Both the position numbers and the translations under genes were made by a program. A model generated the notes under the pieces. The model searched no databases. It was not told the DNA's origin and saw only the letters and a program-made list of their open reading frames with translations. Shown here in pieces: positions 37,089-52,651 of a stretch of DNA of 64,000 nucleotides. Source of the stretch: Variovorax paradoxus EPS (GTDB taxonomy: Bacteria; Pseudomonadota; Gammaproteobacteria; Burkholderiales; Burkholderiaceae_C); contig NC_014931.1 in NCBI RefSeq assembly GCF_000184745.1, forward strand, positions 496,001-560,000. The letters run 5' to 3'. The number at the start of each line of letters is the position of its first letter. Position 1 is the stretch's first letter.

Positions 37089-37446
37089 GTGCGCTGAAAG
37101 CGGTTGGCGTGGGGTCGTCTAGACAAGCATCCCCCATCGATCGCCTCGCCGATGGCCGCACCGGCGCGCCTGCGTGCAAAGCGGTTGTCTAGACAACGCT
37201 GTCGGTGCAAATCGGGTGCTTGCCGTGCGCGCATACGAATCTTCGTAGTCCGCATAGGGTCTGGCAATTGCAAGGCCCAAACAATATCTTCCGCCCCGCG
37301 AACCCGGCCCCTGCGCTCACCATGACGTGCCCGCGCGCCTCAGGCCTGTTTGCCCCCGAAGATGCCACTTCATCGCCGCGTCGCCCGCGAACCCCAGGAT
37401 CGCGAGGCGTGTTGTCTCCTGTCTCCTGTCAGCCCAACAAAAAGCC
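37089..37446. other. 358-bp non-coding stretch with paired TCTAGA palindromes
   Basis: No coding frame is credible here. The region holds the two palindromes described separately, then a lower-GC stretch that presumably contains the promoter of the AraC gene at 37447. CTGTCTCCTGTCTCCTGTC at about 37418-37434 is a short tandem repeat. Confidence 0.5.
37114..37197. promoter_or_regulatory. two GntR/LacI-type operators with TGTCTAGACA core
   Basis: GTTGTCTAGACAAC at 37184-37197 is a 14-bp perfect palindrome. GTCGTCTAGACAAGC at 37114-37128 is a weaker copy. The centres are 70 bp apart. TGTCTAGACA resembles GntR-family (HutC, PhnF, DasR-like) sites. No GntR gene lies in the window, and the next gene is AraC-type, 250 bp downstream. 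Confidence 0.55.
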
Positions 37447-38385
37447 ATGACGAGTTCCAGCCAACGATCCCCGCGTCAACTGCTCCCCGAAGTGGAGGTC
37501 GAGCGCAGCCGCTCTACCGAGCTCGGCTACGAGCCATCGACCGAGGTGGGGCTGGTGCGTTGCCTCGAGCACGGCTTTCCGACGCCGCTCGCGCGCTGGC
37601 ATTGCCATGAGGAATACGAGCTGCACCTGATCGTCGCCACCTCGGGCCAGGCCTTCGTGGGCGACTGGATCGGCGCCTTCGAGCCGGGCCACCTCGTGCT
37701 GTGCGGCCCGAAGCTGCCGCACAACTGGATCTCGCTCGACATGCCTGCGGAGGGCGTGCCGCAGCGCGACCTGGTGATCCAGTTTTTGCACGACCCGATC
37801 TTCGAAGCGGCCCAGCGCATTCCCGAACTGCAGGAGGCGGTGCGCATGCTGGAGCGCGCGCGCTACGGCATCGAGTTCTTCGGCATGTCGGCCAGCGCCG
37901 AGGCGCACTGGCACCGCGTGAAGGACGCGCGCGGCCTCAAGCGCTTCAGCCTGTTCTGCGACTTTCTCGCCGACATGGCGATGTGCACCGACTACCGCCT
38001 CTTGTCGGGCATGCAGACCGACGGCGACCACGGCATCGAGGCCATCAACGACGTGGTCACGCGCATCACCAACGAGCCCGCAAAAGACATCAGCGCGGCC
38101 GACATCGCGGCCGAGCTCGGCATGAACCCGGGGCGCTTCGGCCGGCTCTTCCGGCGCGCCACCGGCCACAGTTTTCTGGGCTACGTGAACGAGGTGCGCA
38201 TCAACAAGGCGTGCCTTCTCCTGATGCAGAGCGACCGCTACGTGACCTCGATTTGTTACGAAGTTGGTTTTAACAACGTCTCGAATTTCAATCGCCGATT
38301 TCTCGAGATCAAAGGCGTGACGCCGACCGAATTTCGCAGGCAAAGCCAGCTTCGTTTCGAAGGCGCGGGCAGTTTGGAGAACTAA
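37447..38385 (+). CDS. AraC family transcriptional regulator
   Basis: The 312-residue protein has an N-terminal cupin-like sensing part (WHCHEEYELHLIVATSGQAFVGDW to GPKLPHNW) and a C-terminal double helix-turn-helix (ISAADIAAELGMNPGRFGRLFRRATGHSF, then VTSICYEVGFNNVSNFNRRFLEIKGVTPTEFR). PHNW and the metal-like histidines suggest sugar sensing, as in other AraC regulators with this domain. No transport operon is adjacent, so the target is elsewhere or the paired palindromes upstream belong to its own control. Confidence 0.92.
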   Translation: MTSSSQRSPRQLLPEVEVERSRSTELGYEPSTEVGLVRCLEHGFPTPLARWHCHEEYELHLIVATSGQAFVGDWIGAFEPGHLVLCGPKLPHNWISLDMPAEGVPQRDLVIQFLHDPIFEAAQRIPELQEAVRMLERARYGIEFFGMSASAEAHWHRVKDARGLKRFSLFCDFLADMAMCTDYRLLSGMQTDGDHGIEAINDVVTRITNEPAKDISAADIAAELGMNPGRFGRLFRRATGHSFLGYVNEVRINKACLLLMQSDRYVTSICYEVGFNNVSNFNRRFLEIKGVTPTEFRRQSQLRFEGAGSLEN

Positions 38386-38519: not shown

Positions 38520-38825
38520 ATGCAAATCCATCGTCTGACCCAGTTGAGCCGCCAACTTGCCTCGAAGATCAAGATCCGCGGGCAAGGCATGACCGAGTAC
38601 CTCGTGATCCTGGGCCTGATCGCCATCGCCGCGATCGCCGTGTTCAGCTTCTTCGGCCAGACCATGCGCAACCAGGTTGCCGGCATGGCCAAGGAAGTGG
38701 GCGGCCAGTCGGGCGCCACCGAAGTCACGAACGCGCAGACCGCCGCCGGCAAGGCGTCGACCAACGCGCAGGTCAACATGAACATGAGCACCTACACCAA
38801 GGGCGGTGCCGAGGCCACGAAGTAA
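38520..38825 (+). CDS. Flp/Tad-type small pilin precursor
   Basis: The 101-residue protein has a 21-residue basic leader ending in Gly, then QGMTEYLVILGLIAIAAIAVFSFF. The +5 position after Gly is Glu26, the hallmark of type IV prepilins, and the hydrophobic stretch forms the pilus core. It is the first gene of the locus and has the size and polarity of a major pilin, followed by a short Ala/Asn/Gln-rich tail. It is followed 41 bp later by the TadG-like gene. Confidence 0.82.
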   Translation: MQIHRLTQLSRQLASKIKIRGQGMTEYLVILGLIAIAAIAVFSFFGQTMRNQVAGMAKEVGGQSGATEVTNAQTAAGKASTNAQVNMNMSTYTKGGAEATK

Positions 38826-38866
38826 GGCTTTGCTCGACGTCCTGACGGCCTGACCGACATCGCGCG

Positions 38867-40780
38867 ATGCCTCCAGCCGCCGCTTCGCTCCCCCTGGCCA
38901 CTGCCGGCGCCTCCGCGCGCCGGCGGCGCCAGTCGGGCCAGGCGATCGTGTACCTGGTGGCGATGCTGCCGATCATCTTTCTGAGCGTGCTGGTGGTCTA
39001 CAACACCGCCACCGCGGCGCGCGAGAAGATGAAGCTGCAGAACACGGCCGATGCGGCCACCTACAGCGCCAACGTGCTCACGGCGCGCACCCTCAACTAC
39101 CTGGCCTACACCAACCGCGCGATGGCCGCCAACGAGGCGAGCGTCGCGACGCTGGCGAGCGTGCAGACGTCGATGGCGATGCTCATCACGAGCGCTGCCA
39201 ACATCCAGGAGGGCCTGGTCGTCGCCGAGGCCATGAAGGGAATACGCAATCTCGAGAGGGCGCGCCTGCCGGTGGTCGGGCCCATCTTCGCCCTTGCCTG
39301 GTTGCTCGGCAACGTGCCCCGCGCGAATCGCCTGCAGCGCACCGCCGACCGCATCGCCGGCTTCGTCGAGCCCTCGGCCAAGCCGCTGCAGATCGGCGCC
39401 GACATCCTTCGCGCGTTCAACCAGGGCATCTCGGCCAGCCAGGCCGTGATGCTGCTGGGCACGACCGCGCAGCTGCCGCAACTGGTGAAGGACGTCGTCA
39501 ACTCGAACGACCCCGATGCGTCGGTCCCGCCGACCGAGACCGCGATCTTCGTCATCAAGTTCGTGGCCGACGTGGGGACCTACCTGAAGACGTACCACCA
39601 GTCGGGCAGCCTCGGTTTCGACGACGAGGAGTTCAACGAGGTGCTGCGCTTCGCGCACGCCGCGCAGGCCACGCGCGACGACTGGACCAAGAACCGCCGC
39701 TTCCTGCCCAACGTGCTCGGCTGGGTCGCCTCGGGCATGTCCGGCGCGCTGCAGGGCATGGTTTCCAGCAGCCCGAATTCGCCACCGGGCTTCAGCGACA
39801 TCACCGGCGACATGATGGGCGGGCTCCTCGAGTGGAAGGGCGGCACCGAACTGGTCGCGACCGAAGGCATCGTGGGCGACGAGACCGGGCGCATCCGCTG
39901 GCAGTCGGCCGATTCGATCGAGATCAAGCTGCCCATCGGCGTGCTCTACACCGACCTCATCGGCGGCTGGGACGACATCCTGCGCGGCCGCTTCGGCCTG
40001 GGTGCGGGCGCGGCTGCGGCAGGCGGACCCAACTACATGAAGAGCTGGGAAGGCCAGCGCCTCACCCTTCGCAGCTACGCCCGCGAGGGGCGCACCTACG
40101 GCGGCCTGAACGGCGAGGTCGGCGACACCGCGTACATGGAGCGCGAATCCTTCGAGCGCGCCGCGCGCGACCGCAACGGCGAGCTGCTGCTGGCCCCGAT
40201 GGCGGTGCTGGTGTTCAACGCCAAGCTGCACTACAGCCCGCGCACCGACATCGGCATCGTCACCAAGAGCTGGGCGATGCCCCGCTTCACCGAGATCAAG
40301 GACCACCCGCCGATGGTGGCCAACGAGTCGGACAACTGGCTCAAGGAAAACGGCTTCAGCGGCGCCAACCCGCTCAAGTGGGGCAAGAACACCGACAAGG
40401 GCCCGGCCTTCACGCTCGTGGTGCAAAAGGGCGGCGACAAGGTGCGCACGGGCGAGGTCGCCGGCTTCGGCAACTCGGCGGCCGACGGCAAGGCGGGTTT
40501 GCGCGACAACTTCCAGGGCCGCGAGATCAAGGCGCTGTCGACCTCGCAGGTCTACTTCCGCCGGCCGCAGGACCGCTGGGCGCGCCGCGACAACGCGGTG
40601 GCCGATCCCTCGACGGTCGGCAAATACAACGTGGGCTTCGCCGGCGGCTACATCGAGCACCGCAGCCTCTTCAGCCCCTACTGGCACGTGCACAACGTGG
40701 AGCCCTCGCTGTGGGCGCGCGCCATCGCCATGGGCGGCGCGGCGGTCGGCGGCTCGGCCGACGAAGACAACGGCAACTGA
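38867..40780 (+). CDS. TadG-like pilus assembly protein
   Basis: The 637-residue protein begins with RRRRQSGQAIVYLVAMLPIIFLSVLVVYNTATA, a prepilin-like membrane anchor without the +5 Glu. It continues with a large Ala-rich periplasmic or extracellular domain with repeated TYSANVLTAR-type N-terminal helices. The layout is that of TadG proteins of tight-adherence loci. The C-terminus is rich in Gly, Asn and Asp. It lies between the small pilin and the second prepilin-like gene. Confidence 0.75.
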   Translation: MPPAAASLPLATAGASARRRRQSGQAIVYLVAMLPIIFLSVLVVYNTATAAREKMKLQNTADAATYSANVLTARTLNYLAYTNRAMAANEASVATLASVQTSMAMLITSAANIQEGLVVAEAMKGIRNLERARLPVVGPIFALAWLLGNVPRANRLQRTADRIAGFVEPSAKPLQIGADILRAFNQGISASQAVMLLGTTAQLPQLVKDVVNSNDPDASVPPTETAIFVIKFVADVGTYLKTYHQSGSLGFDDEEFNEVLRFAHAAQATRDDWTKNRRFLPNVLGWVASGMSGALQGMVSSSPNSPPGFSDITGDMMGGLLEWKGGTELVATEGIVGDETGRIRWQSADSIEIKLPIGVLYTDLIGGWDDILRGRFGLGAGAAAAGGPNYMKSWEGQRLTLRSYAREGRTYGGLNGEVGDTAYMERESFERAARDRNGELLLAPMAVLVFNAKLHYSPRTDIGIVTKSWAMPRFTEIKDHPPMVANESDNWLKENGFSGANPLKWGKNTDKGPAFTLVVQKGGDKVRTGEVAGFGNSAADGKAGLRDNFQGREIKALSTSQVYFRRPQDRWARRDNAVADPSTVGKYNVGFAGGYIEHRSLFSPYWHVHNVEPSLWARAIAMGGAAVGGSADEDNGN

Positions 40781-40796
40781 TGAAGGACGCCCGCGC

Positions 40797-41786
40797 ATGA
40801 CCCGCCCGCATCGACGCCCGTTTGCACATCAGGCCCGCGCGAGCGCCACCGTCGCAGGCCACGCGATGGTCGAGACGCTGCTCATCGTGAGCTTCGCCGC
40901 CGTCGTGCTGGGGGCGATTCCGGCCATTGCCGAATACGGCACCAAGCGCATGCAGACCGTGTCCGCCGCCAAGCTGGTGGCCTGGCAGCGCACCGTGTGG
41001 ATGCCCGAGGCGCAGGGCATCACCGCGGAAGAAGCCAAGGGCGCATCGGGCGCCATCAAGAAGACCGATGCGGAGGTCACGCGCGACCTGCGCCGCCACA
41101 TCTTTCGCGACCGCTCGGCACCCGGCATCTCGATCCACGCCGCCGACATCGCCGAGTTCGAGCCGATGCTGCCGGCCATCGACCAGCGCACCACGGCGGT
41201 GGCCGCGTCGAGCACGGCCGCGCCCTTGCCCTCGCTGCTCAATGCCAGCGACGTGGTGTTCGACGGCATCCGCGTGGCGCAAGCCGCGCTGGGGGGCAAC
41301 GCGATCACCGGTCCGCTGGGCAAGTTCCAGTTCGTGAGCAGCGGGTATCTGCGCCACGAGGTGAAGGTGAGCCAGACCTACACCAAGTTCAAGGACGTTC
41401 CCGCGCTGGACATGACCGAGCAGGTCACCATGCTCACCGAAGCCTGGAACGCCGGCGGCACGAACCGCGAGGAAACCAAGATCCAGGGCCTGGTGCCGAT
41501 GAAGCTTCTGGACGCGCCCTTCTACCAGCAGCTTCGCGGCGGCATGCACCAGACGGCCTACCAGATCAAGCAGATCTTTCCGGCCTTCGACATGAACAAC
41601 CTCACCATGGGCTTCACGCCGGGCGACGCGCTCGAGAAGACGCCGCTGGACCGCTTCGAGCGCATTCCGCCCGGCGCCACCGGCGAGACCGGCGGCGATG
41701 GCGAGGCGAACGGCGGCAGCGTGAAGGACCACTTCCGCTACTACCGCGCCTTCCCGCCGACCCCCGTGGTCAACACGCTGCCCTGA
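40797..41786 (+). CDS. TadE-like prepilin protein
   Basis: The 329-residue protein has GHAMVETLLIVSFAAVVLGAIP after a 22-residue basic leader. Glu lies at +5 after the Gly, so it should be a pseudopilin processed by a prepilin peptidase. A globular domain follows (LPSLLNASDVVF, DAPFYQQLRGGMHQTAYQ). It probably packs at the pilus base or tip. The next gene overlaps its stop by one base (TGATG). Confidence 0.75.
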   Translation: MTRPHRRPFAHQARASATVAGHAMVETLLIVSFAAVVLGAIPAIAEYGTKRMQTVSAAKLVAWQRTVWMPEAQGITAEEAKGASGAIKKTDAEVTRDLRRHIFRDRSAPGISIHAADIAEFEPMLPAIDQRTTAVAASSTAAPLPSLLNASDVVFDGIRVAQAALGGNAITGPLGKFQFVSSGYLRHEVKVSQTYTKFKDVPALDMTEQVTMLTEAWNAGGTNREETKIQGLVPMKLLDAPFYQQLRGGMHQTAYQIKQIFPAFDMNNLTMGFTPGDALEKTPLDRFERIPPGATGETGGDGEANGGSVKDHFRYYRAFPPTPVVNTLP

Positions 41787-42508
41787 TGAGCCTCGCCGCG
41801 CCGTTTCTGCGATGGATGCTCGCCGCCGCATGGCTGTGCCTGTGCGGCGCTGCAGTCGCGGCGCCGCCGCAGCGCGACTGGCCTGCGATTCCGTCGCCCG
41901 CGGCGGCCAAGACCTTCTGGATCGCCGAGTACATCGAGCAGAACACCATCCCCATGCAGATCCGCGGCATCGAGTCGAGCGATCCGCTGGAGGTCGTCTC
42001 GCGCTTCTACGAGAAGTGGCTTTCCGACAAGACCGGCTACGGCGTGACCACGCTCGGGCCCATGCGTGTGCTCGGCGCGCGCTTCGGCCTGTACCAAGTC
42101 ACGGTGCAGTTGCGCGCGGTTCCTTCGGGCACGGCGGGCCGGCTGGTGGCGGCGGTGGTCTACGACGAAGTCAAGAACGAGCAGGCGCTGCGCGAGCGCG
42201 CCGAGCGCATCGGCAAGGGCTTTCCGCGGCCGGCCGGCTCGCAGGTGGTCTCGGACACGCTCTCCTTCGACGAAGGCCAGCGCAACCGCACCATCGTCGT
42301 CACCAACAACGTGAGCGTGGAGACCAACGCGCTCTACCTGCGCGAACAGATGATCCGCCTGGGCTGGACGCTGATACAGGACCGCACGCTGGAGGGCGGC
42401 ACGCGCTCTTCGCTGGTGTTCCGACGCAACAGCGAGGAGATGACCGTGGCCATCTCCAGGCGCGACGACGGCTACTTCATCGTCGCCAGCCAGACCTCGC
42501 CGGAATGA
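41786..42508 (+). CDS. periplasmic protein of unknown function in the Tad locus
   Basis: The 240-residue protein has a signal peptide (RWMLAAAWLCLCGAAVAA) and a domain with no motif I recognise (WIAEYIEQNTIPMQIRGI, TNNVSVETNALYLREQM, GGTRSSLVFRRNSEEM). It is translationally coupled to both neighbours (1 bp and 4 bp overlaps), so it almost certainly belongs to the pilus machine. It could be a Tad-specific assembly or pilotin-like factor. Confidence 0.75.
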   Translation: MSLAAPFLRWMLAAAWLCLCGAAVAAPPQRDWPAIPSPAAAKTFWIAEYIEQNTIPMQIRGIESSDPLEVVSRFYEKWLSDKTGYGVTTLGPMRVLGARFGLYQVTVQLRAVPSGTAGRLVAAVVYDEVKNEQALRERAERIGKGFPRPAGSQVVSDTLSFDEGQRNRTIVVTNNVSVETNALYLREQMIRLGWTLIQDRTLEGGTRSSLVFRRNSEEMTVAISRRDDGYFIVASQTSPE

Positions 42509-42732
42509 GCGCGACCGCCATGCGTTCACGTCGTCCACCTCGCCCACGTTCTTCTTCCCGCCGCACCCAGCGCGGCCAGGTCATCACCGAATACGTGATC
42601 GTCGCCGGCATCCTGGCCGTGATGCTGTTCGCCACCTTCCCGGGCGCCGACCGCTCGGTGGTCGCGCTGCTCATCAAGGCCTTCCGCGATGCCTGGTCGA
42701 CCTACTCGTACACCCTTTCCTATCCTTTGTAG
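42505..42732 (+). CDS. small prepilin-like protein
   Basis: The 75-residue protein has a basic Arg/Ser-rich leader, then GQVITEYVIVAGILAVMLFATFPG with Glu at +5 after Gly. It is a second Flp-like small pilin or a minor pilin. It overlaps the preceding gene by 4 bp and is followed 6 bp later by the CpaB gene. Confidence 0.75.
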   Translation: MSATAMRSRRPPRPRSSSRRTQRGQVITEYVIVAGILAVMLFATFPGADRSVVALLIKAFRDAWSTYSYTLSYPL

Positions 42733-42738
42733 CCAGGC

Positions 42739-43698
42739 ATGAAATCATCTCCGGGACTCCTCAAGTTCAAGCAAAGCGTCAAACGGCTGTCCCCCCTGAT
42801 CGGTGCCCTGATGCTGGGCCTGCTGGCCGCGGGCCTGGGCTGGTATTACCTCAGGGCCAGCGAGCGCGAGATCGCTGCGAGCCTGGAGAAGGACGCCGAC
42901 AGCCAGCGCCGCGACGTGGTGGTCGCGAACCGCGCGCTGGGCGACGGCACCACCGTGCTGCCCACCATGGTGGCCAAGCGTTCGGTGCCCAACGAGTACG
43001 TGCACAACGACGCGATCACGCCCGAGACCTTCTCGCAGTTCGCGGGCCGTCAGCTCTCGGTGCCGGTGGCCGCGGGCAAGCCGCTGCTCGCGTCGTTCTT
43101 CTCGGCGCCGCGCAAGGTGTTCGCGCAGGAGATCGAGCAGGGCGTGCGCGCCATCACGATTCCGGTGGACGAGATCAGCTCCATCTCGGGCATGCTGCGC
43201 GCCGGCGACCGCATCGACTTCATGTACATGGTCGAGAAGTCCGCGGCCAACGATCCCTCGGTGGTGGTTCCGCTTCTGCAGGACGTGGAGGTGCGCGCCA
43301 CCGGCCAGATCACCTCGGAGCAGTTCGCCGCGATGCGCAAGCGCTCCGACGTCTCGGCCGACACCGACCCCTACGCGCAGCAGCGCTACTCGACCGTGAC
43401 CGTGGCGATCCAGCCGCAGGACGCGCAGAAGCTCATCCTGGCCCAGCGCCTCGGAAAGATCATCGCCACGCTGCGCAACCCCGAGGACCGGGCCACCATG
43501 ACCAGCGGCGTCGACGCGGTCGACCTCGATGCCATCGTGGCCGGCTTCAGGCCGCAGCGCTCGCATGCGATGGCCGTGTCCAGCGGACCCTCGGGTCCGA
43601 GCGTCGAATACATCGTCGGCGGCAGCGGCAACCGCGGTGCTCCTCCCGCGCCTGGCCTCGGCGCCGCGTTGCCGACCGGTGGCGCGTTGCCGCGCTGA
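42739..43698 (+). CDS. cpaB: Flp pilus assembly protein CpaB/RcpC
   Basis: The 319-residue protein has one N-terminal membrane segment (LIGALMLGLLAAGLGWYYL), then a SAF-like region (VVVANRALGDGTTV, VPVAAGKPLLASFFS) and RcpC domain (GVRAITIPVDEISSISGMLRAGDRIDFMYM). CpaB is a periplasmic partner of the secretin. The Gly/Pro-rich C-terminus is unstructured. It is followed 71 bp later by the secretin gene, an arrangement standard for Tad loci. Confidence 0.88.
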   Translation: MKSSPGLLKFKQSVKRLSPLIGALMLGLLAAGLGWYYLRASEREIAASLEKDADSQRRDVVVANRALGDGTTVLPTMVAKRSVPNEYVHNDAITPETFSQFAGRQLSVPVAAGKPLLASFFSAPRKVFAQEIEQGVRAITIPVDEISSISGMLRAGDRIDFMYMVEKSAANDPSVVVPLLQDVEVRATGQITSEQFAAMRKRSDVSADTDPYAQQRYSTVTVAIQPQDAQKLILAQRLGKIIATLRNPEDRATMTSGVDAVDLDAIVAGFRPQRSHAMAVSSGPSGPSVEYIVGGSGNRGAPPAPGLGAALPTGGALPR

Positions 43699-43769
43699 AG
43701 TCCCGCCTCCCTGACCTGAACGTCGCCCTCCGGGGCGCGGCCCGATTGACTGATCTCCAGAAAAGTTCG

Positions 43770-45368
43770 ATGAACCTCAAGCGATGCACCTTGGCAGCGA
43801 CGGCGCTGTGTCTTGTTTTCCAGGCCGAGGCGCAGGGTCCGTACCCCGGCGCACCGGCGGCATCGCCCGTGCCGCTGGGCACGGTGGCGCCTGCGCCGGC
43901 TTTCTCGGCACCGGGCGCGCCGGCAGGGGCCCGCGCTGAAACTTCGCCGGGCATCCGCCCACCCGCGCCACCGCCCTCGCAGGCCTCCATCACCGAGGCC
44001 GAGCTGCAGCGCATCGCCGCGCGCGCCACCGTGCTGCAGCGGCTGCCCGATCTGCTCACGCTCTACGTCGGCCAGATGGCGCTGGTCAAGATGCCGGGCG
44101 TCTCGCGCGTGGCCATCGGCAACGGCAAGGTGATGGAAGCCCGCGTGCTCGACGGCGCGAACATGCTCATCACCGCGCAGGACGCGGGCGACAGCACGCT
44201 GCATGTCTGGGACAAGAACGGCACCGTGCGCAAGCTCAAGGTGCGGGTGAACGTGGCCGACCTGGAACGCATCGCCGACGAGCTGCGCGAGATCACGCGC
44301 GGCATCTCGGGCGTGAACATCCGCCGCATCGGCGAGCGCATCATCATGGACGGCAACAGCCTCGATCCGGCCGCCGTCGAGCGCCTCAATACGGTGGCGC
44401 AGCTCTACGCGCCCGCGGTGGTGTCGCTGGCCACGGCCGACCGCATCCGCGTGGACCGCATGGTGGACATCCAGGTGCGCATCGTCGAGTTCAGCAAGAC
44501 CGCGCTGGACGACCTGGGCGTGCGCTGGCAGAGCTCGGGCGACGGCTTCAATTTCGGCCTGTTTTCCGACATCGCCTCCAGCGGCAGCTACCGCATCCTG
44601 CCCGACGGTTCGGCCTTCAACACTTCCACGCCGCAGGGCACGGCGCTGCTGGGCCAGAACCGGCGCATGCCGGAGGCGTACTTCGGCATCGGCCTCAGCC
44701 TCACCTCGCGCATCAACCTCTTGGTGCAGCGCGGCAACGCCTTCCTGCTTGCCTCGCCGAACCTTTCCACCCGCAGCGGCGGCGAGGCCAAGTTCCTGGC
44801 CGGCGGCGAAATCCCGCTGCCCGCGCTCAGCACGCAGGGCGCGGGTTCGGTCGAGTTCAAGCCTTATGGCGTGCGGCTGAACATCAAGCCCATCGCCGAC
44901 GGCGAGGGCAACGTGTCGGGCAGCATCCTTACGGAGGTGAGCAGCATCGACCGCAGCGTGGCGGTGCAGGGCATTCCGGGCCTGTTGATCCGCCGCACCG
45001 ACACCGAGTTCAACGTGAAGGCCGGCGAGACCATCGTGCTGTCGGGGCTCCTGAGCCGCGAATCGACGCGCTCCAGCGACGGCGTGCCGGGCCTGCGCAA
45101 GACGCCGATCATCGGCCGCGCCTTCCGTGCCGACAACGACACCGACAAGGAACAGGAAGTGGTGGTGTTCATCACGCCGCGCGTGGTCGGCCCGGCGGAC
45201 AGCCGCCCGCGCATCGAGCGCGCGCGCGAACTCGAGCGGGACGTGGGAAGCAACTTCGGCACGCTGACCGAAGACAAGTCGGACCCGAACGGTTCGCGCC
45301 CGCCTGCTGCTGCCGCGGACATCGGCGGCATCCCCGCCGGCACGCCCGGCCAGCCCGTCGCTCCTTAA
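43770..45368 (+). CDS. cpaC: Flp pilus secretin CpaC/RcpA
   Basis: The 532-residue protein has a signal peptide, a Pro/Ala-rich linker, N-terminal pilus domains with BON-like repeats (LTLYVGQMALVKMPG, VRVNVADLERIADELREI), then the secretin domain. In the latter, VDIQVRIVEFSKTALDDLGVRW, LVQRGNAFLLASPNLSTRSGGEAKFLAGGE and VVVFITPRVV match the conserved secretin core. It forms the outer membrane pore for pilus exit. The start ATG at 43770 gives a typical signal peptide; a TTG at 43746 is an alternative. Confidence 0.9.
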   Translation: MNLKRCTLAATALCLVFQAEAQGPYPGAPAASPVPLGTVAPAPAFSAPGAPAGARAETSPGIRPPAPPPSQASITEAELQRIAARATVLQRLPDLLTLYVGQMALVKMPGVSRVAIGNGKVMEARVLDGANMLITAQDAGDSTLHVWDKNGTVRKLKVRVNVADLERIADELREITRGISGVNIRRIGERIIMDGNSLDPAAVERLNTVAQLYAPAVVSLATADRIRVDRMVDIQVRIVEFSKTALDDLGVRWQSSGDGFNFGLFSDIASSGSYRILPDGSAFNTSTPQGTALLGQNRRMPEAYFGIGLSLTSRINLLVQRGNAFLLASPNLSTRSGGEAKFLAGGEIPLPALSTQGAGSVEFKPYGVRLNIKPIADGEGNVSGSILTEVSSIDRSVAVQGIPGLLIRRTDTEFNVKAGETIVLSGLLSRESTRSSDGVPGLRKTPIIGRAFRADNDTDKEQEVVVFITPRVVGPADSRPRIERARELERDVGSNFGTLTEDKSDPNGSRPPAAAADIGGIPAGTPGQPVAP

Positions 45369-45387
45369 GACCCGAGAGTCCGCCACC

Positions 45388-47027
<1,640 letters not shown>

Positions 47028-47031
<4 letters not shown>

Positions 47032-47885
47032 AGGGAATGATCCTGCTGGCCTCCGTGCTCTGCGGCATGGGCTTCATCACGCTGTGCGGCTACCTGCTTT
47101 TGCAGCGCTCGCCGGAGCTGGTCGGCAAGATGATGAGCAAGCTGCAGGCAAGCGGCCGCCGCACGCTGAACCTCTCGGAGTTCCAGGCGCAGCATGCGGT
47201 GGCGTTCGCTTCGGGTCATGCATTTCTTGTGGCGCTGTGCGGCGCGGTCGGCTGGCTCATCTCGGGCAACCTGATCGGCGGCGTGGTGGCCGCGGTGGTG
47301 CTGTATCTCCTGCCAGCGCGCTGGTTCGCATGGCAACGCAAGAAGCGCAGGCAGCAGATCGAATCGGAGTTGCCCGATGCGCTGCTCTTCATTGCGAGCG
47401 CGCTGCGCGCCGGCAGCGCGCTCTCGGTTGCGATTCAGGTTCTGGTGCGCGACCAGGTCGGCCCGCTCGGCCAGGAGTTCGGCCTGGTGCTCAAGGAGCA
47501 GCGCCTGGGCGTGAGCTTTGACGACGCGATCCAGAAGATGTCGCAGCGCCTCGGCATCCCCGACTTCGTGCTGGTGGTGGTGGCGCTGCGCGTCTCCAAG
47601 GAAGTGGGCGGCAATCTGTCGGAGCCTCTGCAGGTGCTGGCCGAGACGCTGCGGCGCAAAGCCATTCTCGAAGGCCGCATCAAGGCGCTGACGGCGCAGG
47701 GCCGCATCCAGGGCCTGGTGATGACGCTCTTTCCGCTGCTCCTGATGGGCGTGCTCTACCTGATGCAGCCGACCATGTCGCTCCTGTTCACCACGACGAT
47801 CGGATGGGTCGTGCTGACCGTGATCGCCATCATGCTGATGCTGGGCTACGCGATGATCCGCAAGATCGTCGCCATCGATATCTAG
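47028..47885 (+). CDS. tadB: type II secretion F family protein TadB
   Basis: The 285-residue protein has a GspF/TadB cytoplasmic domain (RRQQIESELPDALLFIASALRAGSALSVAIQ, VALRVSKEVGGNLSEPLQVLAETLRRK) and membrane segments at both ends. It is the inner membrane platform that couples the ATPase to pilus assembly. It is coupled to the ATPase gene (ATGA overlap) and followed 8 bp later by tadC. Confidence 0.9.
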
Positions 47886-47893
47886 GAAGAATC

Positions 47894-48784
47894 ATGCGCT
47901 CGCTGATCCTCCTGGCCATCATTTTCCTGTGCGCGACCACGGGCGTGATCTTGCTGCTCTACATGATCTCGCTGATCCGCAAGGCCCGGCCTTCGGAGCG
48001 CACGCACATGGACCCGCTGCCGCGCATGCTGCGGCTGGTGTGGCCGGTGGTGAACATCCTGCAGTTCCATGTGTCGGAGATCGCGCCGACCTCGATGCTG
48101 GTCAAGAGAAAGCGCCAGTTGCAGCTCGCGGGCCTGGAGTTCGTGCTGAAGGCCGAGGAGTTCATCGCGGTGCAGTGCGTATCGATGCTCATCGTCGCCG
48201 CGCTCGGTCTCTGGACCGCGGGCCTGCTCGACGCCACCGCCGGTACCAAGATCTGGGTCACGCTCGCGTCCTGCGTGACCGGGTGGCTCTACCCGGTGAT
48301 GTGGATGCGCGACCGCCGCAAGCGCCGCGAGAAGGACATCCTGCGCACGCTGCCAGGCTACCTGGACATGATCACGCTGTGCTGCCAGGCGGGCCTGAGC
48401 TTGACCGGTGCCATCGCGCAGGCGGTGCAGAAGGGCCCTGGCGGCGCGCTCGGCCAGGAGTTCGACCGGATGATGCGCGAGATGCGCACCGGCGCGAGCC
48501 GCATGGACGCGCTCAACGCGCTGGCCGATCGCCTGGACAACAAGCACATCAAGAGCCTGGTGTCGAACCTCACGCAGGCCGAGTCGCTGGGCGCGAGCCT
48601 GGCCGACACGCTCTCGGCCATTTCGGACCAGCGCCGCACCGAGCGTTTCCAGATGGCCGAGAAGCTCGCGATGGAAGCGCCCGTGAAGATGATCGGGCCG
48701 CTGGTGATCTTCATCTTTCCGGTGACCTTCATCATCATTTTTTTCCCGCTGGTGATGCAGTTCCTCGAAACGCAGAACCACTGA
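47894..48784 (+). CDS. tadC: type II secretion F family protein TadC
   Basis: The 296-residue protein is homologous in layout to TadB: two N-terminal helices, a GspF domain (KDILRTLPGYLDMITLCCQAGLSLTGAIAQAV, LVSNLTQAESLGASLADTL) and two C-terminal helices (MIGPLVIFIFPVTFIIIFFPLV). TadB and TadC together form the platform. It is followed 17 bp later by the DUF192 gene. Confidence 0.9.
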   Translation: MRSLILLAIIFLCATTGVILLLYMISLIRKARPSERTHMDPLPRMLRLVWPVVNILQFHVSEIAPTSMLVKRKRQLQLAGLEFVLKAEEFIAVQCVSMLIVAALGLWTAGLLDATAGTKIWVTLASCVTGWLYPVMWMRDRRKRREKDILRTLPGYLDMITLCCQAGLSLTGAIAQAVQKGPGGALGQEFDRMMREMRTGASRMDALNALADRLDNKHIKSLVSNLTQAESLGASLADTLSAISDQRRTERFQMAEKLAMEAPVKMIGPLVIFIFPVTFIIIFFPLVMQFLETQNH

Positions 48785-48801
48785 TTCCACTGAAATCACC
48801 G

Positions 48802-49143
48802 ATGCGCATCGTCTCCCTCCGCTCCCCCCAGGCCCAGCCCTTCGGTCCCGTGCGCGTGGCCGAACGCGGCTGGGACCGCACACGCGGGCTGCTCGGGCGG
48901 CCGCGGCTGGCCGCGAGCGAGGGCCTTCTGATCATGCGCTGCAGCTCGGTGCACACGGTGGGCATGCGCTATCCGATCGACGTCGTCTTTCTCGACCGGC
49001 ACGGCGGCATCGCGCGCGTGGTCGAGAGCCTGCGCCCGATGCGCGTGGCCATGTGCCTGCGCGCGGCCCACGTGCTCGAACTGGCGGCGGGCCAGGCGCG
49101 GCGGCTCGCGCTGCGTCCGGGGTCGAAGTTGTCGGGCTGGTAA
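48802..49143 (+). CDS. DUF192 domain protein within the Tad locus
   Basis: The 113-residue protein has the DUF192 core: RTRGLLGRPRLAASEGLLIMRCSSVHTVGMRYPIDVVFLDRHGGIARV, then LELAAGQARRLALRPGSKL. DUF192 is a small beta-barrel of unknown function. The family usually carries a signal peptide, which this copy lacks. It sits between tadC and the TadE-like gene with short gaps, so co-transcription with the pilus genes is likely. Confidence 0.85.
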   Translation: MRIVSLRSPQAQPFGPVRVAERGWDRTRGLLGRPRLAASEGLLIMRCSSVHTVGMRYPIDVVFLDRHGGIARVVESLRPMRVAMCLRAAHVLELAAGQARRLALRPGSKLSGW

Positions 49144-49171
49144 CCACCCACGAAAGCACAGGAGAACAGCA

Positions 49172-50353
49172 ATGCATTCCACGCTTCAACCCAAGCGCCG
49201 CCAGCGCGGCGTCTCCATGACCGAGACCATGATCGCGCTGCCGGTGCTGATCCTGTTCGTGATGTGCGTGGTGCAGTTCGGCCTCATCTACCGCGCGCGC
49301 CTCACGCTGGAGTACGCGGCGCACGAGGCCGCGCGTGCGGGCTCGCTCAACAACGGCATGCCGCTGCCCTTCATCTTTCGCATGGGTAACTCGACCGTGC
49401 CGGGCCTCTCCACGCTCAACAGCGCGGCGCTGGAGCTCACCACCAACGCGCTCACGCGCGGGAGCGTGTGGCAAGGATTGGTCAAGGGGATGATGCCGCT
49501 CAATGTGCGAGAGGCCAGCGTGGGCGGCATGTTCAAGGGCTGGATCGACACCAACACCGACCTCATCCAGTCGGCCTGCATCGAGTACCTGAATCCGACG
49601 CAGACCACGTTCATCGACTGGGCCTTCATCGAGAACTTCGGCCAGAACCGCTGGATCATGCAGATCCCCAACGACACCATGCGCTACCGGAAGCCGCTGC
49701 CCTACGACTTCAAGGCCAAGGCCATGAGCACCACCGTGGGCATCGGCGATCCGCTGCCGCCCGATGCGGAACTGCGCGGCAACGTGTCGAACAAGACGTT
49801 GGGCGAAGCCAGCGTGCTGCACCTGCGCGTGCACTACGGCTACCGCCTCGGGATTCCGGTGGCCAACAAGATCATTCTCACCGCGCTCAAGGGCTACCAG
49901 TTCGTGGGCGAGGCGTGGTTCAAGCTCATGTCCACCGACGGCGCGACCGCGCCCGGCACCGATTTCCGCCTCAACCAGCTCGATGCGTACTACATCGCCA
50001 ACGGCAAGATCCCTTTGTCGGCCGAGGGCGTGGCGGGCATGGAGTCGCCGATGTTCTGGCACCCGTTCTATTCGTTCGGCCCGCGGGGCGACCGCAGCAT
50101 CGAGCTGCAGTGGGACCCGGCATGGAGCAACAATCTCGGCATCAACGTGCTGGAGAAACCGCAGGACGCCATGACCAACATCTTCGCCTTCGTGCGCAAC
50201 AACAGCACCGAGTGGGCCTCGCAGCTGCTGGCCAGCGGCGTCGACGCGCTGGCCGACAAGGTCGGTGACGGCAACTCCTTCTGCCCGGCCATCTGGGACG
50301 CCTCGGTCAAGGGCCAGCTCGACCAGGTGCCGAACCCGGGCAAAGCGCCCTGA
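49172..50353 (+). CDS. TadE-family prepilin-like protein
   Basis: The 393-residue protein begins RRQRGVSMTETMIALPVLILFVMCVVQFGLIYRARLTLEYAAHEAARAG, a classic TadE motif, with Glu at +5 after the Gly. A large globular domain follows, with one Cys near residue 135 (QSACIEYL) and another near the C-terminus. It would be a pseudopilin of the Tad machine. It ends by overlapping the next start codon by one base. Confidence 0.82.
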   Translation: MHSTLQPKRRQRGVSMTETMIALPVLILFVMCVVQFGLIYRARLTLEYAAHEAARAGSLNNGMPLPFIFRMGNSTVPGLSTLNSAALELTTNALTRGSVWQGLVKGMMPLNVREASVGGMFKGWIDTNTDLIQSACIEYLNPTQTTFIDWAFIENFGQNRWIMQIPNDTMRYRKPLPYDFKAKAMSTTVGIGDPLPPDAELRGNVSNKTLGEASVLHLRVHYGYRLGIPVANKIILTALKGYQFVGEAWFKLMSTDGATAPGTDFRLNQLDAYYIANGKIPLSAEGVAGMESPMFWHPFYSFGPRGDRSIELQWDPAWSNNLGINVLEKPQDAMTNIFAFVRNNSTEWASQLLASGVDALADKVGDGNSFCPAIWDASVKGQLDQVPNPGKAP

Positions 50354-52651
50354 TGCAAGAGGCAGTGCACGACGGGCATGGCGCGGGCACCGCGCAGGAC
50401 GCGCACGCTGCGCGCGGCGCTGGCGCTCTGGCGCTTTGTGCATCGACGATCTTCGTCTCGGCCTTCCTGCTGTTCCTCGTCCAGCCGCTGATCGCGCGAC
50501 AGATCCTGCCGTGGTTCGGCGGCTCGGCTGCGGTGTGGACGCTGTGCCTGGTGTTCTTTCAGGTCGTGCTGCTCGTCGGGTATTTCTATGCCGACCGGCT
50601 CTCGCGCCGGCCGCTGCGCACGCAGGCCGTCGTGCATGCGCTCCTCTTGCTCGCGGCCTGCGCGATGCTGCCGGTGATTCCCGATGCGGCGTGGAAGCCG
50701 ACCGGGCAGGGCGACCCCTCGGCGGGCGTGCTCGCGGTGCTGGCCGCCACCATCGGGCTGCCGTATCTCGCGGTGTGCACCACCGGGCCGCTGGTGCAGA
50801 GCTGGGTCGCGCGGCTGCATGCGGGCGATGCGCCGCGGCAGGCGAAGGTCTACCGGCTGTTCGCGCTGTCGAACCTCGCGGCGCTGGCGGCGCTCGTGGT
50901 GTATCCCTTCGTGCTGGAGCCGGTGTTCGCGCTGCATGCGCAGGCCATGGCATGGTCGGTGGGCTTCGGGCTGTTCGCGGTGCTGGCGATCGTGTCGGTG
51001 GTGGCCGTGGCGAAGGCAAAGCCGATGTCGACAGCGAACGCCACAGAAGCGCCGACGAGGCCGACATTGCCGCTCTCGTGGAAGGACCAGTTGCTGTGGC
51101 TGGTGCTGGCCGCACTCGGCACGGTCGCGCTGCTGGCGGTGTCGGCCTTCATCACGCAGGACATCGGCCTCGGTGCCGATGCTGTGGATCGTGCCGCTCG
51201 CGCTCTACCTGCTGAGCTTCGTGCTCTGCTTCGACAGCGACTTCTGGTACCGGCGCTGGCTCTTCTGGCCCGCGGTGGTGGTGCTCCCGCCGGTGATGGG
51301 CTGGTACCTGAACACGCCGCAGCGTTCGCTGCCGATCGCCGCGGCCATCGGGCTCTATTGCGTCGGCCTCTTCGCGATCTGCATGTTCGCGAACGGCGAA
51401 CTCGCACGCGCCCGGCCCGGGCCCGAGCGCCTTACGCGCTTCTACCTGCTGCTGGCGCTGGGCGGTGCGGTGGGCGGCATCTTCGCTGGCGTGGTCGCGC
51501 CGCATTTCTTCAACGGCTACTGGGAGCTGCCGGCGAGCCTTGCAGCGCCGGGGCTGATCGTGCTGTGGCTCACGCGCGGGCGCCTGCAATGGGTGTGGAC
51601 GGTGTTCGCGTTCGCCGTCGTGGTGGGCTTCGCGGCATTCCTGCGGATGGACGCGGTGGCCGTGTCGCTCAACGTGCTGTATGCGTCGGTGAGCGCGTTG
51701 GCGCTCTTCGCGGTGGGCTACACCGCATGGCGCGCACGCTCATGGCTGGCGGCCGCGGGCTTGGCCGGCGCGCTGGCCTCGGTGGCGGTGGCTTGGCTCT
51801 CGGTGTACAGCGTGCTCGAAGCCGACAACCGCACGATGCTGCGCGTGCGCAACTTCTACGGCGCGCTGCGCGTGGAGCAGTTCGGCATTCCGGGCGCGCT
51901 GACCGCGTCGCGCCGGCTGATGCACGGCGTGATCTCGCACGGCGAGCAACTGCAGGGCGCGGTGCAGCGGCGCTTGCCGAGCACCTACTACGGACCGAAA
52001 TCCGGCGCCGGTCTGGCGCTGCTCACGAACCGCGGCGAGACCCAGCGCGTGGGCGTGATCGGCTTGGGCGTGGGCACGCTCGCGGCCTATGGGCGTGCCG
52101 GCGATATGGTGCGCTTCTACGAGATCAACCCGCGCGTGACGGCGGCGGCGCGCTCGCATTTCACCTACCTCGCCGATTCGCCCGCGACGGTCGAAGTCGC
52201 GCAAGGCGATGCGCGCCTCTTGATGCAGCAGGAGCTCGATGCGCAGGGTTCGCAGCGCTTCGATGTGATCGTGGTCGATGCCTTCTCGGGCGATGCGATC
52301 CCGATGCACCTGATGACGCGCGAGGCACTGGCGCTCTATGGCAAGCACCTGCTGCCCACGGGCGTGATCGCCTTCCACATCAGCAACCGGCACCTGCTAC
52401 TCGCGCCGGTGGTCAAGCGCCTGGCCGAGGATGCGGGCATGCAGGCGCTGCGCATGCATTTCGAGCCCGTGCCCAACAACCTCACGCTCGAGCATTCGTC
52501 GGAATACGTGCTGCTCACGCGCGACCCGCGCTTTCTGCAGGACCCGGTGATCCGCGAGCGCGGTGAGGCCATCGATGCCGCGGGCGTGACGACGTGGACC
52601 GACGACCACAGCAACCTGCTGGGCGCGCTGCGTTGGACGACGAAGCCTTGA
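50353..52651 (+). pseudogene. spermidine synthase-like membrane protein, frameshifted
   Basis: The first part, from ATG at 50353, encodes membrane helices (VSAFLLFLVQPLIARQILPWFGG) and runs in frame to FITQDIG near 51168. Similarity then continues one base later in the +1 frame as SVPMLWIVPLALYLLSFVLC, through more helices to a C-terminal spermidine synthase-like domain (VGVIGLGVGTLAAYG, FYEINPRV, FDVIVVDAFSGDAIPMHLMT). An extra C in GGCCTCGG at 51166-51173 explains the shift. Intact members are single proteins of about 760 residues. It is either a recent pseudogene or a sequencing error. Confidence 0.8.

What the first reader, a model, noticed from the sequence alone, without database searches (positions are those of the whole stretch)
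38520..50353. Flp/Tad pilus locus with FHA-TadA fusion and no TadV or TadZ
The locus has a secretin (43770), CpaB (42739), a TadA ATPase (45388), TadB, TadC and at least four prepilin-like proteins with Glu at +5, all on the plus strand and largely coupled. It lacks a prepilin peptidase (TadV/CpaA) and the TadZ/CpaE polar ATPase. TadA instead carries an N-terminal FHA domain. The missing localisation factor and the FHA fusion suggest that phosphothreonine signalling positions or switches the machine, while pilins are matured by a PilD elsewhere in the genome.
Basis: partly seen in the sequence, partly recalled or inferred. Interest (0 to 1): 0.75.

Follow-up and report, generated by a model that had tools for sequence, protein, structure and literature searches.

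The report
Tad-like pilus with altered FHA motor
This is a conserved kind of bacterial pilus machine whose motor carries a domain that usually reads phosphate signals but here seems to have lost that ability, and which lacks the usual protein that positions the machine, so it probably places its motor in a different way.

Summary
The locus is real and complete: 12 co-directional genes at 38520-50353, with an FHA domain fused to the TadA/CpaF motor and no TadV or TadZ. FHA-CpaF fusions are already described ("class III" CpaF; KilF of Myxococcus). New here: this is not a damaged Tad locus but a conserved subtype ("type A"). In 54 of 54 related loci with long flanks no TadV or TadZ was found, and the rest of the cassette, including a predicted secreted protein without Pfam match (Orf4) and a DUF192 gene, mostly keeps its order. 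The host genome carries a second full copy, plus a canonical Tad locus with TadV and TadZ. No locus of 92 has both FHA fusion and TadZ, and in 14 a TadZ-like ATPase is fused at the same N-terminal place. Best reading: a phospho-independent docking module that stands in for TadZ.

The parts
37327..38385 (+). AraC-type regulator upstream; duplicated together with the locus, but not seen beside other type-A loci
   Evidence: PF12833 85.8 bits; present in 2 of 54 type-A loci, both in the own genome
38520..38825 (+). FlpX, Flp-like prepilin (101 aa), G|QGMTE, candidate major pilin (inference)
   Evidence: homologues in 54 of 54 full type-A loci
38867..40780 (+). TadG-like (PF13400 Tad, Tyr at +5)
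   Evidence: 54 of 54
40797..41786 (+). TadE-like prepilin 1, G|HAMVE
   Evidence: 53 of 54
41786..42508 (+). Orf4: protein without Pfam match (240 aa; signal peptide read by eye), hallmark of the subtype; model is a tandem repeat of a small alpha/beta fold
   Evidence: (start); no Pfam match in the right frame (one search had used a wrong frame); 50 of 54
42505..42732 (+). small prepilin (75 aa), G|QVITE
   Evidence: a single-sequence search found it in 14 of 54, a weak test for so short a protein
42739..43698 (+). CpaB/RcpC
   Evidence: PF16976 80.2 bits; 54 of 54
43770..45368 (+). CpaC secretin
   Evidence: PF00263 124 bits, PF13629 58.3 bits; 54 of 54
45388..47031 (+). FHA-TadA/CpaF motor ATPase (547 aa): FHA residues 2-94, low-confidence linker 97-122, CpaF core after it
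   Evidence: AF2 mean pLDDT 80.5; best PDB match TadA/CpaF 8rjf, E 1.3e-47
47028..47885 (+). TadB inner-membrane platform
   Evidence: PF00482 53.9 bits; 54 of 54
47894..48784 (+). TadC inner-membrane platform
   Evidence: PF00482 64 bits; 54 of 54
48802..49143 (+). DUF192 protein
   Evidence: PF02643 67.6 bits; 52 of 54
49172..50353 (+). TadE-like prepilin 2, G|VSMTE
   Evidence: 43 of 54

Best explanation
The locus encodes a complete Tad-like pilus of a distinct, coherent subtype (type A). Shown by sequence: a 12-gene cassette with an FHA-CpaF motor, two platform proteins, secretin, CpaB, five prepilin-like proteins, Orf4 and DUF192, without TadV or TadZ; an FHA domain stripped of the pThr-binding signature but under purifying selection. 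Inferred: prepilins are cut by the genome's PilD (or by a TadV where one is present). The FHA domain, on a flexible linker in front of each motor subunit, is a phospho-independent docking module that brings or holds the motor at the membrane machine, the job that TadZ does in canonical systems. Its partner would be a cassette protein (cytoplasmic parts of TadB/TadC, or DUF192, are guesses) bound through the reshaped loop that carries Trp38 and through the Gly76-Pro77 turn. The FHA module probably first joined the motor in a Kil-like ancestor that still read phosphate, and lost that chemistry at the base of type A.
For: Gene content and order: 66 distinct type-A loci; of the 54 with at least 7 kb upstream and 4.5 kb downstream, TadV 0, TadZ 0, Orf4 50, DUF192 52, TadB, TadC, CpaB, CpaC, FlpX and TadG-like 54 each; 38 of 54 in the full order. 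FHA versus TadZ in 92 TadA loci: 46 with FHA fusion, 0 with TadZ; 46 without, of which 25 have a separate TadZ, 14 a TadZ-like ATPase fused to the TadA N-terminus, 7 neither (fused ones read, Pfam ParA/MinD-type NTPase in 3 of 3 scanned). With at least 8 kb on both sides: TadZ in 0 of 25 against 20 of 25. FHA residues: type A first set (30) Arg 9, Lys 19, Ser 2, His 29, Asn 2, all four 0; type B (16, Kil-like) Ser 16, Asn 9, all four 7; second type-A set (34) Arg 19, Lys 14, Ser 4, His 32, Asn 0, all four 0. Trp38 in 60, Gly76 in 59 and Pro77 in 63 of 64. FHA-domain dN/dS 0.28 between the two own copies, 0.31-0.32 against a Variovorax MAG. Type A is one side of a branch in the TadA-core tree (29 rows plus truncated L132, SH-aLRT 98; with the 36 second-sample rows added, all 66 rows, SH-aLRT 99). 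Genome level: full-length TadZ match in 6 of 27 and 7 of 35 type-A genomes; exactly one Peptidase_A24 match in 19 of 27 and 22 of 36 (one genome is in both sets). Precedent in passages read: EssC FHA domains lack phosphate-binding residues and bind the EssB pseudokinase (PMC10765036); PrgH residues at the supposed pThr site could be changed without effect on secretion, yet deleting the domain stops assembly (PMC3635987).
Against: No interaction, localisation or binding was measured. The FHA/TadZ exclusion rests on few independent events: the states cluster strongly on the tree, so it may be one historical swap rather than repeated functional replacement. Five planctomycete loci and one WOR-3 locus have neither module nearby; their TadZ may lie elsewhere, or a Tad motor may need none. 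Some type-A FHA domains keep Ser (6 of 64) or Asn (2 of 64). The own genome has a TadZ that could act in trans. TadZ is divergent and the searches scored a capped number of candidates per genome (69, 53, the latter at E 1e-38 only), so copies can be missed; several genomes are drafts. The type-A loci were found by their FHA-TadA, so 'the FHA is always kept' is partly circular.
Confidence: 0.6

Rival explanations
1. The FHA domain still reads phosphothreonine by a non-canonical pocket (Lys for Arg), so a Ser/Thr kinase switches or places the pilus.
For: The FHA fold and the conserved His remain; Arg or Lys stands at the first site in 61 of 64; the genome has 6 PF00069 matches; related type-B FHA-TadA proteins keep the canonical site (all four residues in 7 of 16).
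Against: Ser kept in 6 of 64, Asn in 2 of 64, all four in 0 of 64; no kinase in the window cassette; stand-alone FHA proteins, found near 12 of 16 type-B loci, were found near 0 of 30 first-set type-A loci.
Confidence: 0.12
2. The FHA domain is a leftover without a placing role; the motor finds its platform by itself and type A simply needs no TadZ.
For: Loci with neither module nearby exist (7 of 92, one of them truncated).
Against: FHA dN/dS about 0.3 and a subtype-specific Trp and Gly-Pro. In the tree group the only row without an FHA domain is L132, which is cut by its contig end; in L155 and L158 the FHA stretch is in another reading frame but present. Since loci were found by FHA-TadA this is a limited test.
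Confidence: 0.15
3. TadZ and TadV of a canonical locus serve the type-A machine in trans.
For: The own genome has both in L024.
Against: In 49 of 62 type-A genomes no full-length TadZ was found and 41 of 62 show only one peptidase gene.
Confidence: 0.08

Closest known systems
Class III CpaF (FHA - disordered region - CpaF), Nat Commun 2025, PMC12019362 (section 10 and passages read)
   Same: Same motor architecture; reported mostly from betaproteobacteria; example Achromobacter xylosoxidans E3HIW0
   Different: The section read says the FHA domain binds phospho-threonine peptides (citing another paper); it does not speak of lost residues, of the gene cassette, or of TadZ/CpaE (0 occurrences in the text)
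Kil system of Myxococcus xanthus (KilF), eLife 2021, PMC8460266 (passages read)
   Same: FHA fused to the single motor ATPase; Tad-like platform and secretin; the paper reports that its motor gathers at prey contact sites and at no fixed cell site
   Different: The paper says Kil lacks TadG, type A has a TadG-like protein. Kil-type relatives here keep canonical FHA residues, carry extra FHA proteins and often a TadV; in type A these were not found
Canonical Tad/Flp pilus (for example L024 of the same genome)
   Same: Secretin, CpaB, TadA, TadB/TadC, Flp-like and TadE/G-like prepilins
   Different: Type A has no TadV or TadZ, and adds FHA, Orf4 and DUF192. No TadD-like gene is among the 12 window genes; for other loci TadD was not properly tested (the profile found only its own seed)
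EssC of T7SSb and PrgH/MxiG/YscD of T3SS (passages read)
   Same: FHA folds in secretion machines without the pThr residues, serving assembly contacts
   Different: Not pilus motors; no kinship claimed beyond the FHA fold (Pfam YscD_cpl 31.1 bits, below its cut-off of 33.2)

Membership tests
Class III CpaF motor | N-terminal FHA, disordered linker, CpaF core | tested here: met
   Pfam FHA and T2SSE; AF2 model with residues 97-122 below pLDDT 50; best PDB match TadA/CpaF
Canonical Tad pilus | Secretin, CpaB, TadA, TadB and TadC, Flp-like and TadE/G-like prepilins in one cluster | tested here: met
Canonical Tad pilus | TadZ/CpaE | tested here: not met
   0 of 54 full type-A loci; not found in 49 of 62 genomes
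Canonical Tad pilus | Own prepilin peptidase TadV/CpaA in the locus | tested here: not met
   0 of 54 loci; only peptidases at 5.251 and 5.598 Mb in the own genome
Canonical Tad pilus | TadD | tested here: inconclusive
   none among the 12 window genes; profile too narrow for other loci
Canonical Tad pilus | Assembles a Flp pilus | not testable with these tools
   needs microscopy or genetics
Kil system | FHA-fused motor | tested here: met
Kil system | Additional FHA proteins beside the machine | tested here: not met
   0 of 30 type-A loci, 12 of 16 type-B loci
Kil system | Two separate gene clusters | tested here: not met
   type A is one cluster in the loci examined
Kil system | Contact-dependent prey killing | not testable with these tools
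   needs experiment
pThr-binding FHA domain | FHA fold | tested here: met
   PF00498 44.1 bits over cut-off 20.7
pThr-binding FHA domain | Arg, Ser, His, Asn signature (motif recalled; seen in the rows) | tested here: not met
   Lys27, Ala41, His44, Phe63; all four in 0 of 64 of the subtype

The most novel reading that the evidence does not exclude
Tad motors have at least two interchangeable N-terminal placing modules, TadZ (separate or fused) and FHA; in type A the FHA module has become phospho-blind and recognises a fixed partner through a Trp/Gly-Pro face, so these pili are placed without any ParA/MinD-like positioner.
Probability: 0.35. Interest if true: 0.68.

Novelty: new variant of a known kind. 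Interest (0 to 1): 0.52.

Why it matters
TadZ is described as the hub that recruits Tad components at the pole (PMC6668835, passage). A subtype spread over many proteobacterial genera that lacks it in the locus, often in genomes where no TadZ was found at all, makes the question 'what does a Tad motor need to find its machine?' directly testable. It also corrects an easy inference: the class III FHA domain should not be assumed to bind phosphothreonine in this branch. And it gives a natural experiment in pilin maturation by a shared PilD.

Tried and rejected
Damaged or partial Tad locus: rejected; same cassette in related loci, and the 14 gene pairs of the two own copies all have dN/dS of 0.55 or less (the large downstream gene over 494 residues only).

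TadZ/TadV just outside the window: rejected; the flanks lie inside the window and the only peptidase matches lie elsewhere.

Kinase next to the locus: six PF00069 matches, none in the window cassette. One FHA protein (L012) is a type VI secretion FHA protein. For L018 and L022 I picked frames without a Pfam match, so those two were not confirmed there. Kinases near other type-A loci were not examined.

Orf4 fold: AF2 model pLDDT 90.9; PDB search gave one match below E 0.001 (5h7z, 7.5e-5, TM 0.29, a type VI immunity protein) and weaker partial matches, among them DcrB and PsbP. Function open. The fold search with the motor listed motor ATPases in its 50 rows, no FHA structure. DUF192 with pilus in print: four papers listed, none opened; no link seen in titles or abstract starts.

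Literature on TadZ loss or TadZ-TadA fusion: searches. Searches gave 0 and 1 papers (the one seen as a listing); the six were judged by listing only; one search gave 202 papers, of which 12 were listed, all through the phrase 'tad locus'. One of them (PMC7494200, Variovorax paradoxus; passages) describes a Tad locus with its own peptidase, so it resembles L024, not this locus. 'Not in print' is only as strong as searches.

Scripts: the TadZ counts were too low because of a parsing slip (best domain not kept; fused ones partly lost) and are replaced. The TadV counts come from the same table and are lower bounds. One search also tested the wrong column for the Trp, so its A/B split was off by three rows; one search is the correct split. 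Output was cut in the middle. In one search the comparison column of 18 rows includes the duplicate L165 and the partial L155. The TadZ and TadV profiles were grown from the same 92 loci on which they were counted; Peptidase_A24 is an independent check for TadV.

In the order sample 71 of 300 genomes matched, first-look candidates were capped at 4 a genome, and I took the 36 with matches of 600 bits or more besides the own genome; 34 weaker ones were left unread. It was picked by score to a type-A alignment and cannot estimate frequency. Dropped before counts: L165 (same genome and locus as L081); L155 and L158 from residue counts (FHA stretch in another frame); 12 of 66 loci for short flanks; L064 from both trees. 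Two rows of the tree are identical.
Full report
WHAT IS THERE. The window is part of one 6.55-Mb contig. Between 38520 and 50353 lie 12 plus-strand genes: FlpX, a TadG-like protein, a TadE-like prepilin, Orf4, a small prepilin, CpaB, a secretin, FHA-TadA, TadB, TadC, DUF192 and a second TadE-like protein. Four of the five prepilin-like proteins have Glu at +5; the TadG-like one has Tyr. TadA has an FHA domain (PF00498, 44 bits) before the T2SSE core (212 bits). The AF2 model shows an FHA sandwich at 2-94, a low-confidence linker and a CpaF core (mean pLDDT 80.5), and the best PDB match is TadA/CpaF.

THE REST OF THE GENOME. Ten T2SSE matches were found, three of them of CpaF type. One is canonical (L024), read from its frames as Flp, TadV, CpaB, CpaC, TadZ, CpaF, TadB, TadC, TadD and TadE/F/G-like genes; TadV (PF01478), TadZ (PF16968 TadZ_N, 29 bits) and weak TPR matches for TadD were confirmed, the others rest on order and similarity. 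Another is a second copy of the window locus (L025) with its own AraC-type gene and large downstream gene. The two copies are 91-93% identical in TadA, TadB and TadC, 82-85% in secretin and CpaB, and 64-82% in the five prepilin-like proteins; all dN/dS are 0.55 or less. Both copies therefore look maintained, with the prepilin-like parts diverging fastest.

A CONSERVED SUBTYPE. A scan of 200 genomes of the same family, one scan of species genomes (best 80 kept) and an order-wide scan of 300 genomes (36 genomes taken further) gave 66 distinct loci of this kind, the two own ones included. Named hosts include Variovorax, Hydrogenophaga, Massilia, Telluria, Rugamonas, Castellaniella, Eoetvoesiella, Thauera, Pseudomonas and Acidithiobacillus, some of them metagenome-assembled. 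Of the 54 loci with enough flank, none has a TadV or TadZ match; the same profiles found TadV in at least 8 of 16 type-B and 19 of 46 non-FHA loci, and TadZ in 39 of 46 non-FHA loci. Orf4 is present in 50 of 54 and DUF192 in 52 of 54, and 38 of 54 keep the complete order. In the TadA-core tree type A is one side of a branch (29 rows plus a truncated one, SH-aLRT 98; with the second sample 66 rows, SH-aLRT 99; both quick trees without bootstrap). Its nearest neighbours are Myxococcota Kil-like proteins, with weaker support (89).

PILIN MATURATION. Exactly one Peptidase_A24 match is found in 19 of 27 type-A genomes of the first set and 22 of 36 of the second. One genome is in both sets and has two matches, so the sum is 41 of 62. 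In these 41 the open frame is 265-383 aa, PilD-sized, in all but two (234 and 243 aa). So a shared PilD is the simplest source; the window's own genome also has a TadV.

OFTEN NO TadZ ANYWHERE. Full-length TadZ matches were found in 6 of 27 and 7 of 35 type-A genomes. Elsewhere one search lists only partial matches, either the ParA/MinD-like part or the receiver-like part, and one search lists nothing at E 1e-38. The closest canonical CpaF matches lie in the same 6 genomes of the first set; one further genome (G209) has a 467-aa CpaF-like frame at a contig end, and G207 has two long frames.

FHA AGAINST TadZ. Among 92 TadA loci (80, the window, L024, L025 and nine of the same family), 46 carry an FHA fusion and none of these has TadZ nearby. 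Of the other 46, 25 have a separate TadZ, 14 have a TadZ-like ATPase fused to the N-terminus of TadA (read; mostly Bdellovibrionota, also Omnitrophota, Elusimicrobiota, Eremiobacterota, WOR-3 and one labelled Deltaproteobacteria; 3 of 3 scanned have a Pfam ParA/MinD-type NTPase there), and 7 have neither, one of them cut by its contig end. The FHA module thus sits where the TadZ-like module sits in the fused proteins. This suggests replacement, but the states cluster strongly on the tree and so rest on few events.

THE PHOSPHATE SITE IS GONE. Aligned with 2kkl (Mb1858, by my recall the M. bovis form of the pThr-binding protein GarA, which other rows name), the window has Lys for Arg, Ala for Ser and Phe for Asn. 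The roles of these residues in pThr binding are recalled general FHA knowledge; searches give parallels where their loss is taken as loss of pThr binding. In 30 type-A proteins of the first set Ser is kept in 2, Asn in 2 and all four hallmark residues in none; in 16 type-B proteins Ser is kept in 16, Asn in 9 and all four in 7. The first type-A set was defined by the Trp, but it also coincides with the tree group, and Orf4 was found in 27 of 30. In the second set, chosen without regard to these residues, Ser is kept in 4, Asn in 0 and all four in 0 of 34, and the Trp is present in 30. Gly76-Pro77 is conserved as well (59 and 63 of 64). The FHA part is under purifying selection (dN/dS 0.28-0.32). 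So the domain is used, but apparently not in the textbook way.

MECHANISM. Shown: gene content, its conservation, loss of the pThr signature, no co-occurrence of FHA fusion with TadZ. Inferred: the FHA domain docks the motor on a fixed partner and thereby replaces TadZ. KilF, a relative with FHA fusion, is diffuse until prey contact and then gathers at the contact site (PMC8460266, passages); the two Myxococcaceae KilF-like proteins here (L086, L103) keep all four residues. For type A, parallels with EssC and PrgH favour a phospho-independent contact.

KNOWN OR NEW. The fusion itself is known (PMC12019362, section 10; PMC8460266, passages). The 2019 survey of type IV filaments (PMC6668835, passages) treats TadZ as a Tad component, notes that peptidases are shared between systems, and holds no word beginning with FHA. 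The subtype with its cassette, its absence of TadZ and TadV and its degenerate FHA site was not described in what I read or found by searches. I file it as a new variant of a known kind. It is a class III CpaF system and Tad-like, but not a canonical Tad system, because TadZ and TadV were tested and not met.

Noticed in passing
L082, L085, L093, L098-L100, L102, L105, L108, L110, L121, L127, L128, L143 (TadA ORFs): TadA proteins of about 700-810 aa carry a TadZ-like ParA/MinD-type ATPase as N-terminal fusion; four of these loci (L093, L098, L099, L100) also have stand-alone FHA proteins.
   Followed up: partly
window 41786-42508 and homologues: Orf4, a protein without Pfam match in 50 of 54 type-A loci; the confident AF2 model shows a tandem repeat with only weak structural matches.
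   Followed up: partly
window 48802-49143; also L096, L106, L109, L116, L119, L133, L142 and others: DUF192 genes lie near Tad loci in several phyla (52 of 54 type-A loci; 10 of 46 non-FHA loci); one search showed no reported link in its listing.
   Followed up: partly
window 50275-52648: A large downstream gene (by eye like an MFS/spermidine-synthase protein; its L025 paralogue has no Pfam match) reads in two frames with a break near 51165, while the paralogue in L025 is one open frame; pseudogene or assembly error.
   Followed up: partly
own genome, window locus and L025: Two full paralogous copies whose prepilin-like proteins (64-82% identity) diverge faster than motor and platform (91-93%).
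   Followed up: yes
L112, L117, L131, L136, L137: Planctomycete Tad-like loci with neither TadZ nor FHA found near TadA.
   Followed up: no
L155 and L158: Type-A loci in which the FHA stretch and the motor lie in different reading frames or ORFs; natural split or sequence error.
   Followed up: no
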